36,406 nt of DNA. Origin: an uncultured Clostridia bacterium (GTDB lineage Bacteria; Bacillota; Clostridia; Oscillospirales; Ruminococcaceae). The stretch covers positions 1 to 36,406 of the forward strand of contig CANQLR010000024.1 of NCBI GenBank assembly GCA_947624745.1, given 5' to 3'. The translations under genes and the position numbers were made by a program. Below the pieces are notes generated by a model, which searched no databases, had not been told where the DNA came from, and worked only from the letters and a program-made list of their open reading frames with translations. Positions 10,277 to 11,964 of this stretch are shown here, in pieces; the first letter of the stretch is position 1, and every line of letters starts with the position of its first letter.

Positions 10277-10414
10277 AAAAAAGTCCGCGTTGCCGTTGTT
10301 TACAGACATAAAACCCGCACTCGGCAGGGTGGGTAAAGACGCCCCATCCGTTTCGCGCTCCCTTCGTCCGGCACACGGCCGGGAGGTCTGCAATCCGCGG
10401 ACGGAGGACGAATC
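10277..10414 (-). ncRNA. Candidate small structured RNA of about 140 nt, family not recognised
   Basis: On the minus strand a promoter (10421-10449) is followed by a GC-rich segment whose ends pair: GTCCGCG near the 5' end (10396-10402) with CGCGGAC at the 3' end (10283-10289), then an inner CAGAC/GTCTG pair, and immediately a run of six T. Internal hairpins CTCCC/GGGAG and CCGGC/GCCGG are visible. A competing pairing TTCGTCC/GGACGAA (10406-10412 with 10363-10369) would break the closing stem, so the RNA may have two folds. No ORF with a ribosome binding site is inside. It runs convergent to ruvX, so it is not a leader of a visible gene. Confidence 0.5.
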
Positions 10415-10420
10415 CCTTAA

Positions 10421-10449
10421 ATTATGTGTTGGATTTAAAAAACTGTAAA
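10421..10449 (-). promoter_or_regulatory. Promoter of the candidate small RNA
   Basis: On the minus strand TTTACA (10444-10449), 17 bases, CATAAT (10421-10426). The RNA would start near 10414. Confidence 0.5.
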
Positions 10450-10473
10450 CTGACGAGCAACGCAGACAAACAT

Positions 10474-10706: not shown

Positions 10707-11084
10707 TTATACCTCGTCCTCGTAGGTGTCGCCGGAGAAGTCGTCGTCATCGCTTTCGCCCTCTTCGCCTTCGCTCTCCTCATCGTCGCCGTCGAAATAT
10801 TCGGCGAGGCGGTCAAGGAAGATGTTCCCGATCCTCTCGTATTCCGCGTCGTCCTCGATGGTGACGAGGGTGCTTTCGTCGGTCGGGTCCTCAAGCTTTA
10901 AAACGACCAGCTCGGCGTCGCCCGATATCCTCTCGGCGGGGTCGTCGTAAACCGGCGTGAGCGCATAGTAAACCTGCCCGTTTTCCTCGAGGGTGTCCCA
11001 CAGCTCGAAGGTCGTGAGCTCGCCGTTTTCGTCCTCAAGAGTGTAAAGCTCGGGCTCGAAGCTATCGTTACCGTTATATGTCAA
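10707..11084 (-). CDS. DUF1292 (YrzB-like) protein
   Basis: A 125-residue acidic cytoplasmic protein of the DUF1292 family: an N-terminal half of short strands (YTLEDENGELTTFELWDTLEENGQVYYALTPVYD), then EAELVVLKLE and DDAEYERIGNIFLDRLAEYF, then a highly acidic tail. It starts at a TTG (11084) with AGAGG seven bases upstream. In many Firmicutes this gene follows ruvX in the same direction; here it faces ruvX with the small-RNA candidate and a repeat between them. The function of the family is unknown. Confidence 0.82.
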   Translation of the reverse strand: MTYNGNDSFEPELYTLEDENGELTTFELWDTLEENGQVYYALTPVYDDPAERISGDAELVVLKLEDPTDESTLVTIEDDAEYERIGNIFLDRLAEYFDGDDEESEGEEGESDDDDFSGDTYEDEV

Positions 11085-11166: not shown

Positions 11167-11224
11167 GCACTTTTTTGTAAACAATATGTGAACAAATTAT
11201 TTTCAACTTTTTTTAAAAAAACTA

Positions 11225-11253
11225 TTGACATTTGCCAAAAGGTGTGGTATATT
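11225..11253 (+). promoter_or_regulatory. Strong sigma-A type promoter of the mini-ORF array
   Basis: TTGACA (11225-11230), 17 bases, TATATT (11248-11253). Transcription would start near 11260 and enter the mini-ORF array. Confidence 0.8.
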
Positions 11254-11313
11254 ATAGTCAAGGAAGAGGAAGAAAGACAAAGCCGAGGGGCAGACAACCC
11301 CGAAAAAATTTCC

Positions 11314-11645
11314 TGAAAGGGGAAGATTCCGATGAAGAGGTTTGCAGAACTCTGAAGATCAATGAACCTAAAAAGGACTGATGCTTTATGAAACTCGCAA
11401 GATCCTGGATTTAAACCCGAAATAAACCGAAAGAGGTGAGTCCGGCATACAGTTTCGCATGATCATTAGATTCATAAGTCAAAGGTAAAAGATATCTCAC
11501 GGAGGATGATTCCGATGAATGTTAACAAACACAAACTTCACTGAAATTTTATAAAGGATGTGTTTCCGATGTATGTTGACACTCTGAAAATTCTTTAAGA
11601 TCCTTGAAAGGCGTGAATCCGATGAACAGGTTGGTTTACCTTTAG
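11314..11645 (+). other. Tandem array of six mini-ORFs with repeated ribosome binding sites
   Basis: Six tiny frames follow each other at about 55-base intervals: 11332-11355 (MKRFAEL), 11388-11414 (MKLARSWI), 11459-11488 (MIIRFISQR), 11515-11544 (MNVNKHKLH, or 12 residues from an in-frame ATG at 11506), 11569-11598 (MYVDTLKIL) and 11622-11645 (MNRLVYL). Units 1, 4, 5 and 6 have a purine-rich SD (GAAAGG, GGAGG or AAAGG) followed at fixed distance by a TTCCG-ATG or ATCCG-ATG leader. Unit 2 has AAAAAGGA and a diverged leader. Unit 3 keeps AAAGAGGTGAGTCCG but has GCA where ATG is expected, so its start shifts to 11459. The repeat lies in the translation-initiation part while the peptides differ. 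The whole is read from the promoter at 11225 and ends just before the folded element at 11662. Function unknown. Confidence 0.6.
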
Positions 11646-11661
11646 AAATAAACTTTTATAT

Positions 11662-11884
11662 ATAAAGAGCAGACTTAGCCCCTCTTCAATAAGAAAACAA
11701 GCCTGCATAATCCGACTCAAAGCCGCCATCTTCATCGTTGGCGGCTCTTGCATTCCACAAAGGAGTGCGTGCGAGCCGCCGCCTTGAATCTGACGGCTTT
11801 GAGCGACTATGCGGTGCTTCGCAGTGCCCGCCGGGCACTCTTGTTTTCTTATCTCAGAGGGGCTTTCTGCTCCTTTATTTTTTT
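11662..11884 (+). ncRNA. Large multibranched inverted-repeat structure ending in a T run
   Basis: The outer arms pair in three blocks: ATAAAGAGCA with TGCTC-TTTAT (11662-11671/11868-11878), AGCCCCTCT with AGAGGGGCT (11677-11685/11856-11864), and ATAAGAAAACAAG with CTTGTTTTCTTAT (11689-11701/11840-11852). Inside are GCATA/TATGC, CTCAAAGCCG/CGGCTTTGAG, GGCGGCTC/GAGCCGCC with GCATTCC/GGAGTGC nested in it, and a hairpin GTGCCC/GGGCAC. A seven-T run follows (11878-11884). It can be the 3' domain and terminator of the mini-ORF transcript, a free-standing RNA (a weak promoter-like TTTACC/TATATA lies at 11635-11662), or a MITE with about 40-base terminal inverted repeats. Confidence 0.6.
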
Positions 11885-11964
11885 GTCCTTTCGGTCTAAA
11901 AGGTGAACAAGCCGAATATATTATGACAGCAAGCAAAACGAATACCCGAAAAGGAGCATTTCAA

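What the first reader, a model, noticed from the sequence alone, without database searches (positions are those of the whole stretch)
11225..11645. Tandem array of six 7-9 codon mini-ORFs with a repeated initiation region
A consensus promoter leads into six mini-ORFs spaced about 55 bases. In the repeat it is the ribosome binding site plus the TCCG-ATG-like leader that is conserved, while the peptides (MKRFAEL, MKLARSWI, MIIRFISQR, MNVNKHKLH, MYVDTLKIL, MNRLVYL) all differ. Repeating an initiation signal, each with its own stop, is not a pattern of any leader known to me. It could load ribosomes to keep the RNA translated, act as a decoy for 30S subunits, or encode several short peptides. It lies just upstream of the coat operon sipL-spoIVA.
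Basis: partly seen in the sequence, partly recalled or inferred. Interest (0 to 1): 0.8.

Follow-up and report, generated by a model that had tools for sequence, protein, structure and literature searches.

The report
Stand-alone array of ribosome-capturing mini-genes
A gut bacterium and many of its relatives carry a strongly promoted, self-terminated RNA built almost entirely from serial ribosome-binding sites, each followed by a tiny reading frame or none, which probably occupies ribosomes rather than encoding an ordinary protein.

Summary
The array is real and goes well beyond this window. It looks like a gene of its own: near-consensus sigma-A promoter, serial units, intrinsic terminator. 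It usually lies divergent from a DUF1292 gene, often with 6S RNA on DUF1292's other side. Of 100 family genomes anchored on DUF1292, 54 have the promoter plus at least two distinct units; one passes on the opposite strand. Units (Shine-Dalgarno, CC-N-ATG) number 190 forward, 5 reverse and about 13 in shuffles.

The conserved leader GGAGTGAGTCC(R) can pair with nearly the whole 16S tail. About half of the strict sites have no start codon; 24 of 71 of these sit exactly 9-10 nt after the stop of a short peptide. Many ATG units are two-codon ORFs. In the window's genus MKLARSWI varies only synonymously; in a second genus peptide constraint is weak.

sipL-spoIVA is a variable neighbour.

Most likely the RNA captures ribosomes at initiation (confidence 0.42). 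Rivals: peptide-coding mRNA, minigene tRNA trap. Expression is untested. No described counterpart turned up in Rfam or ten paper searches.

The parts
11225..11253 (+). Sigma-A promoter: TTGACA, 17-nt spacer, TGGTATATT (11 of 12 hexamer matches), A/T-rich upstream; start of RNA predicted near 11260
   Evidence: a promoter of at least 10/12 with spacer 17 lies on that side of DUF1292 in 66 of 100 family genomes
11313..11355 (+). Unit A: leader CTGAAAGGGGAAGATTCCG plus ORF MKRFAEL* (11332-11355); relatives read MKR*, MKRHLSD* and the like
   Evidence: the leader pairs with the 16S tail at -16.4 kcal/mol
11371..11414 (+). Unit B: leader AAAAGGACTGATGCTTT plus ORF MKLARSWI* (11388-11414)
   Evidence: 14 copies in 11 loci; 8 of 8 distinct codon variants are synonymous
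11429..11443 (+). Unit C: GAAAGAGGTGAGTCC, extended Shine-Dalgarno without a start codon at the start position; strongest pairing in the array (-19.0 kcal/mol)
11497..11544 (+). Unit D: leader TCACGGAGGATGATTCCG plus ORF MNVNKHKLH* (11515-11544); relatives mostly MNVNKHKIL*
   Evidence: -16.0 kcal/mol
11551..11598 (+). Unit D': duplicate of D seen only in the window, ORF MYVDTLKIL* (11569-11598)
   Evidence: -13.8 kcal/mol
11605..11645 (+). Unit E: leader TGAAAGGCGTGAATCCG plus ORF MNRLVYL* (11622-11645)
   Evidence: -15.8 kcal/mol
11667..11885 (+). Likely terminator of the array RNA: arms GAGCAG (11667-11672) and CTGCTC (11867-11872) plus T-run, interrupted in its loop by the element below
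   Evidence: read; intact hairpins at this place in relatives
11677..11866 (.). 190-nt palindromic MITE-like insertion; not part of the array
   Evidence: five further copies in the own genome (one a partial match) and many in the genus; flanks
10707..11084 (-). DUF1292 gene, the usual divergent neighbour
   Evidence: PF06949, 55.2 bits
10278..10471 (-). 6S RNA beyond DUF1292, a frequent neighbour
   Evidence: RF00013, 64.3 bits; found in 11 of 20 sources searched

Best explanation
The array is a stand-alone RNA gene whose product captures initiating ribosomes (30S subunits). A near-consensus sigma-A promoter makes an RNA of roughly 0.3 to 1.3 kb. The RNA carries serial extended Shine-Dalgarno sites that can pair with nearly the complete 16S 3' tail (GGAUCACCUCCUUUCU), including the bases next to helix 45. 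Sites with AUG let the subunit start, translate 2 to 25 codons and stop. Sites without AUG cannot start in the ordinary way and would hold a 30S. Many AUG-less sites lie exactly 9-10 nt after the stop of a short, often basic peptide, so a subunit released there would be recaptured next door. The net effect would be to set aside part of the pool of initiation-competent ribosomes: in effect, for ribosomes what 6S RNA is for RNA polymerase. Shown here by sequence: promoter, terminator, units, complementarity, missing AUGs, fixed spacing, short ORFs, distribution. Inferred: transcription, ribosome binding, trapping, net effect on the cell. The short peptides may add a second role (pausing at their stops).
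For: Scan without any motif for 18-mers pairing with the 16S tail at -13 kcal/mol or better: 112 on the array strand against 4 on the other in 23 arrays (20.0 kb; 1 to 9 per array); window array 13.9 per kb against 2.2 elsewhere. Full tail read from two family members, GGCTGGATCACCTCCTT from 4 of 10 genomes. Mean duplex energy -14.0 (190 ATG units) and -15.9 (97 AUG-less sites) against -10.4 for 12 ordinary window genes. 141 GTGANWCC sites: ATG at the start position in 70, a near-cognate codon in 6, neither in 65. AUG-less sites: a peptide stop 9-10 nt upstream in 24 of 71, against 3 of 70 ATG sites and 7 of 705 random positions. Two-codon ORFs 32 of 100 units against 3.8% of 397 other ATGs, repeated in a second set, 14 of 56 against 22 of 453. 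Terminator-like hairpins downstream in 43 of 63 loci. The leader is not the ordinary RBS: GTGANTCCNATG occurs twice in the 2.57-Mb genome, one of them in this array, with 1 hit for the reversed control.
Against: No expression or ribosome data. A pure decoy would not need peptides, yet MKLARSWI is under codon-level constraint. Predicted pairing does not leave the sites more open: mean unpaired probability 0.39 at the sites against 0.45 elsewhere in 21 RNAs. About 15% of ATG leaders have A, not T, before the CC, which weakens the pairing. Replacing the last 8 nt by A costs the ATG units 5.7 and the AUG-less sites 7.6 kcal/mol, but ordinary genes lose 4.0 too, so the extra pairing of the 'spacer' is moderate. 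In the window's close clade the stop of MKLARSWI lies about 21 nt, not 9-10 nt, before the AUG-less site. In 46 of 100 DUF1292-anchored genomes the criterion was not met at that place, although a few of these seem to have arrays elsewhere. The 16S tail of the window's own genus was not found and is assumed to be that of the family. The energies are for sites chosen by motif; one search is free of that bias.
Confidence: 0.42

Rival explanations
1. Micropeptide mRNA: a polycistronic message for several functional peptides (an MDxxE-type first peptide, basic peptides ending in NI, MKLARSWI, MNVNKHKIL); the strong sites only ensure expression.
For: MKLARSWI: 8 of 8 distinct codon variants synonymous, expected fraction 0.21. 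MNVNKHKIL: 22 synonymous against 9 non-synonymous codon cells, 8 against 8 distinct variants. First ORFs of many genera begin M[DE]xxE (by eye). Basic peptides often end in I (by eye).
Against: About a third of the units encode only two residues and about half of the strict sites have no start codon. In a second genus ORF1 and the last basic peptide vary mostly non-synonymously (3 synonymous to 8 non-synonymous, each), B1 is 4 to 4, and one of five ORF1 copies has a 1-nt deletion.
Confidence: 0.22
2. Minigene trap: two-codon ORFs with strong sites make ribosomes cycle and drop short peptidyl-tRNAs, tying up certain tRNAs and peptidyl-tRNA hydrolase, so the RNA slows translation through tRNA rather than 30S.
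For: Two-codon ORFs are strongly enriched. 65 of them use mainly AAA (17) and TAC (14) as last codon, and TAA most often as stop (32 of 65). PMC8708949 (passages read) states that two-codon minigenes are the most toxic, that a strong SD makes the ribosome reinitiate without dissociating, and that UAA stops are worse. MY*, MR* and MT* are identical in five g87 loci, one of them at 82% identity to the query, and MY* and MR* recur in the more distant L156 and L157.
Against: Does not explain AUG-less sites or their fixed distance from a stop. Last codons are varied, not one rare codon. In the window itself the conserved ORFs are 7-9 codons long.
Confidence: 0.15
3. Sponge for another factor: the GUGAGUCC motif is read by an RNA-binding protein or a regulatory RNA, and the likeness to the 16S complement is secondary.
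For: The motif is kept without ATG. A downstream GACTCAC can pair with it in one clade (L044, L048).
Against: The conserved leader is largely what pairing with the 16S tail predicts. The complement GGACTCAC was absent from the window's 6S RNA and from the four rRNA-end loci checked.
Confidence: 0.12
4. Cis-acting leader (attenuator or coupling device) for the downstream gene, such as sipL here.
For: Lies 5' of sipL-spoIVA in the window, and of sipL in 9 of 26 fetched relatives, 0.3 to 2 kb away. In six loci the first hairpin found lies more than 250 nt past the last unit.
Against: Terminator-like hairpins downstream in 43 of 63 loci, within 250 nt of the last unit in 37. No sipL match in the fetched stretch of the other 17 of 26 relatives.
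Confidence: 0.06

Closest known systems
Minigenes (lambda bar type; recalled) and two-codon mini-ORFs before toxin genes such as axe-txe (PMC8708949, passages read)
   Same: Strong ribosome-binding site plus a two-codon ORF; ribosomes cycle, pause or drop peptidyl-tRNA
   Different: The examples described there are single or paired and act in cis before a gene; here they are serial in what looks like a gene of their own, mixed with AUG-less sites and peptides of up to about 25 codons
6S RNA (RF00013)
   Same: Works-like comparison only: an RNA that mimics the binding site of a central machine to take it out of use (recalled). A 6S gene is a frequent neighbour
   Different: No Rfam 6S match within the arrays searched; target would be 30S, not RNA polymerase
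Leader peptides and attenuators (trp, erm, tna types; recalled)
   Same: Short ORFs with their own sites in an RNA leader; some stall at a stop codon
   Different: No constant downstream gene; serial, minimal, partly AUG-less
Extended Shine-Dalgarno sites of Staphylococcus aureus (PMC13009471, passages and start of the abstract read)
   Same: SD pairing extended towards the start codon
   Different: Those sites precede genes and guide start-codon choice; here they are arrayed and often lack a start codon
AUG-stop upstream ORFs (plant NIP5;1, PMC11915504, search listing with start of abstract only)
   Same: Minimal ORF stalls the ribosome
   Different: Eukaryotic, in the 5' leader of a gene

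Membership tests
Minigene (bar/axe-txe type) | Two-codon ORF behind a strong SD | tested here: met
   32 of 100 CC units are two-codon; 14 of 56 in a second set. Not met for the window's own ORFs, which are 7-9 codons
Minigene (bar/axe-txe type) | Peptidyl-tRNA drop-off or local mRNA effect | not testable with these tools
   needs experiment
Minigene (bar/axe-txe type) | Located before a gene that it regulates in cis | tested here: not met
   hairpins downstream in 43 of 63 loci; downstream gene not constant
Leader peptide / attenuator | Same transcript as a regulated downstream gene | tested here: inconclusive
   terminators and changing neighbours speak against it, but transcripts were not mapped and 20 of 63 loci gave no hairpin
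6S RNA | RF00013 sequence and structure | tested here: not met
   6S matches lie beyond the neighbouring gene, none in an array
Any Rfam 15 family | Match at gathering score within an array | tested here: not met
   window and 20 loci; a lax search of five loci gave seven hits, all below their gathering scores, among them L20_leader at 23.0 of 58.7 bits
30S decoy RNA (proposed) | Sites complementary to the 16S tail, partly without start codon | tested here: met
30S decoy RNA (proposed) | Binds 30S in the cell and lowers free 30S | not testable with these tools
   needs experiment

The most novel reading that the evidence does not exclude
A translational counterpart of 6S RNA: a dedicated, highly transcribed RNA that sequesters 30S subunits through serial full-length anti-anti-Shine-Dalgarno sites, with repeating two-part traps in which a short peptide is made, terminated, and the released subunit is recaptured 9-10 nt further on at a site that has no start codon. 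It would be an RNA-based control of ribosome availability, kept beside 6S RNA in a large family of gut bacteria.
Probability: 0.33. Interest if true: 0.93.

Novelty: categorically new. Interest (0 to 1): 0.82.

Why it matters
How bacteria park or ration ribosomes is known mainly through proteins (hibernation factors) and nucleotide signals (recalled). An RNA made of serial, partly AUG-less initiation sites would add a new layer, testable with simple in-vitro toeprinting. It also offers a natural system of two-codon ORFs and of termination followed by a site without a start codon at fixed distance. Even if the decoy reading fails, an RNA gene with this architecture in many genera of one family gave no Rfam 15 match at gathering score and did not turn up in the ten paper searches made here.

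Tried and rejected
Ordinary RBS consensus: rejected. Only two GTGANTCCNATG in the own genome, one in the array; none of the 16 window gene starts listed shows the leader.
Link to infC: in three loci of two other families the promoter divergent from DUF1292 drives infC. In the 19 family genomes searched, infC lies on another contig or at least 40 kb from the locus. Dropped.
Pairing with 6S RNA or other rRNA parts: no GGACTCAC in the window's 6S or in L144-L147.
Conserved global fold: fold z-scores of 21 RNAs average -1.5 with wide spread (0.55 to -4.95); no common structure pursued and no covariance model built.
Palindrome 11677-11866 as part of the array: rejected, it is a mobile repeat.
Viral origin: no hit of one pattern in viral contigs; nothing else was tried.
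Codon evidence in a second genus: weak (ORF1 3 synonymous/8 non-synonymous, B1 4/4, B3 3/8).
The promoter control (other strand, 65 of 100) is not a usable control, because DUF1292's own promoter lies there. One search counted a site with ATG twice (as CC unit and as GTGANWCC site); one search recounts distinct sites and gives the same 54 of 100.
One search is the fair codon count; one search used a pattern that let only chosen positions vary and is not relied on. One search had wrong orientation for part of the loci and was replaced.
Rows dropped before counts: L086, L091, L104, L108 (no promoter of 10/12) and L056 (a tRNA gene); the 34 of 100 loci below 10/12 count as negatives. Of 107 DUF1292-bearing genomes (one per genus) were read; not in that count are the own genome, G022 (read as L034), G032 (read as L043), G062, G069, G125 and G163. 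One search used 29 loci: 26 cut at terminators, L034 and L039 cut by eye, and the window cut at 430 nt. In some searches the stretch after the promoter was of fixed length and can run past the terminator.

Full report
What is there. The window segment 11225-11645 holds a near-consensus sigma-A promoter (TTGACA, 17 nt, TGGTATATT) and a run of short frames behind strong Shine-Dalgarno (SD) sites. A search of 60 relatives with 11200-11960 split the region in two. The array part is a single locus, with strong matches in some genus members and weak ones in others. The part 11677-11866 is a repeated palindromic element, inserted in the loop of what should be the array's terminator.

Anatomy in the genus. 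Aligning the window with eight close relatives gives five units, A to E; in two further relatives A-B is present two and three times (L038, L040). A: AAAGGGGACGATTCCG-ATGAAGAGG. B: ATGAAACTCGCAAGATCCTGGATTTRA (MKLARSWI*). C: GAAAGAGGTGAGTCC without ATG. D: CGGAGATGATTCCG-ATG (MNVNKHKIL*). E: GAAAGGCGTGAATCC-R-ATGAAC. D shows 8 synonymous and 8 non-synonymous distinct variants in 12 copies, with the window's two copies among the outliers. So B at least appears to be translated and its peptide selected.

Family-wide gene. The neighbour most often kept is the divergent DUF1292 gene, found in 23 of 26 fetched relatives; it is missing in L032, which has the array, L042 starts too close, and L056 has no array. 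Using it as anchor, 100 genera of the family were read. 66 have a promoter of at least 10/12 with spacer 17. 54 of 100 have in addition at least two distinct units or sites downstream on that strand, and one on the other strand; total sites in the 66 are 215 against 9. One locus of another family in the order, L123, has a compact version; I saw none in the other 19 order loci fetched. GGTGAGTCCNATG occurs 47 times in 119 family genomes against 6 for the reversed pattern; by my count, 27 of the 47 lie beside DUF1292. Of the other 20 (all fetched) two look like arrays in another place (L230, L233) and two more are possible (L231, L237). GGAGTGAGTCCNATG was found in 7 of 295 genomes across the order; that pattern is strict and says little about diverged arrays. 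6S RNA lies beyond DUF1292 in the window and was found at gathering score in 11 of 20 sources; of the nine others, L088, L089, L098 and L110 do not include that side, L035 ends close to it, and L032, L044, L048 and L052 gave no match.

A stand-alone RNA. In 43 of 63 loci a terminator-like hairpin with T-run was found downstream: within 80 nt of the last unit in 19, within 250 nt in 37, further in six. Where the hairpin follows closely, RNA lengths run from about 0.3 kb (L123) to about 1.3 kb (L111). sipL is downstream in 9 of 26 relatives, 0.3 to 2 kb away, and not in the fetched stretch of the rest.

Two kinds of unit. (i) Leader GGAGTGAGTCC or GGTGANTCC, then R, then ATG and a very short ORF: 32 of 100 CC units are exactly two codons and 59 of 100 at most four, against 3.8% and 17.6% of 397 other ATGs in the same RNAs; in the second set 14 and 24 of 56 against 22 and 86 of 453. 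65 two-codon ORFs use mainly AAA and TAC. In genus g87 MY*, MR* and MT* are unchanged in five loci. (ii) Leader like GGAGTGATGCNTTATG with an 8-15 codon, often basic peptide, often ending in I. Of 71 AUG-less GTGANWCC sites, 42 have a stop of an SD-ORF (6-25 codons) within 60 nt upstream, 24 of them at exactly 9 or 10 nt and 8 at 15 or 16. ATG sites give 3 of 70 at 9-10 and random positions 7 of 705. This fixed register is the strongest sign that termination and the AUG-less site work together. In the window's close clade the MKLARSWI stop lies about 21 nt away; there an overlapping frame ends at 10 nt in the window.

What the leader is. The 16S tail GGAUCACCUCCUUUCU was read from two family members, and GGCTGGATCACCTCCTT from 4 of 10 genomes. 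The window's own genome, and the three genus mates tried, gave no match to the tail patterns, so the tail is assumed there. GAAAGGAGTGAGTCCG pairs with nearly all of it at -18.8 kcal/mol. A scan that used no motif found 112 sites at -13 or better on the array strand and 4 on the other in 23 arrays; in the window 13.9 per kb in the array against 2.2 elsewhere. Ordinary window genes do not carry this leader. About half of the strict sites have a codon at the start position that is neither ATG nor near-cognate, mostly AAA, AAG, CCN, ACA or GCA.

Mechanism. The parts read as a device that takes in ribosomes: a promoter close to consensus, many long pairings with the 16S tail, ORFs too short to make a protein, and sites that cannot start in the ordinary way. 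I favour capture of 30S subunits with release and recapture (0.42). Peptide function (0.22) is favoured by MKLARSWI but not by the two-codon ORFs or by the second genus, where ORF1 and the last basic peptide vary mostly non-synonymously and one ORF1 has a 1-nt deletion. Minigene-like depletion of tRNAs (0.15) is favoured by the two-codon ORFs, for which PMC8708949 (passages read) gives the rules. The decoy and minigene readings may act together. Against the decoy: predicted structure does not leave the sites more open (0.39 against 0.45), the extra pairing of the spacer is moderate, and nothing shows expression.

Comparison and novelty. No Rfam family matched an array at gathering score in the window and the 20 loci searched; a lax search of five loci gave seven sub-threshold hits. 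Ten paper searches for decoys, minigenes, tandem short ORFs and RNAs of these families listed nothing like it, judged by titles and abstract starts of the rows shown (15 of 373, 10 of 13); the library holds open-licence papers only. Extended SD pairing is known from genes of S. aureus (PMC13009471, passages and start of abstract). I therefore rate the architecture categorically new, with function inferred.

Noticed in passing
window 11677-11866; L160-L169: A 190-nt palindromic MITE-like element. In the window and at least four of the ten other copies read (L160, L161, L166, L167) its flanks form the two arms of an intrinsic terminator with a T-run (by eye), so it seems to insert into terminator hairpin loops.
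   Followed up: partly
window 10278-10471 (-) and relatives: 6S RNA, DUF1292 and the array form a recurrent neighbourhood; 6S found in 11 of 20 sources.
   Followed up: partly
L128, L134, L141: In other families of the order the strong promoter divergent from DUF1292 drives infC (IF3) with an apparent non-AUG start.
   Followed up: partly
G034:C3:1076398 and 1079359: DUF1292 plus an array unit appear twice about 3 kb apart, as if the whole locus is duplicated.
   Followed up: no
L044, L048 (unit C): A downstream CGACTCACAG, kept in that clade, could pair with GTGAGTC of the AUG-less site and hide it.
   Followed up: no
L087, L105, L107, L115: After AUG-less sites a small hairpin with loop TGAAAG and a stem that varies between copies (e.g. 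AGTGATGAAAGTCACT, AACGATGAAAGTCGTT).
   Followed up: no
window 11381-11425: An overlapping frame from the first ATG (MLYETRKILDLNPK*) ends exactly 10 nt before GTGAGTCC, the register typical of the family; the codon constraint is in the other frame.
   Followed up: partly
G000, G003, G024: IF3 C-terminal domain scores 88-91 bits in the window's genus against 105-131 in the other 17 genomes searched, so IF3 may be unusually diverged in this genus.
   Followed up: no
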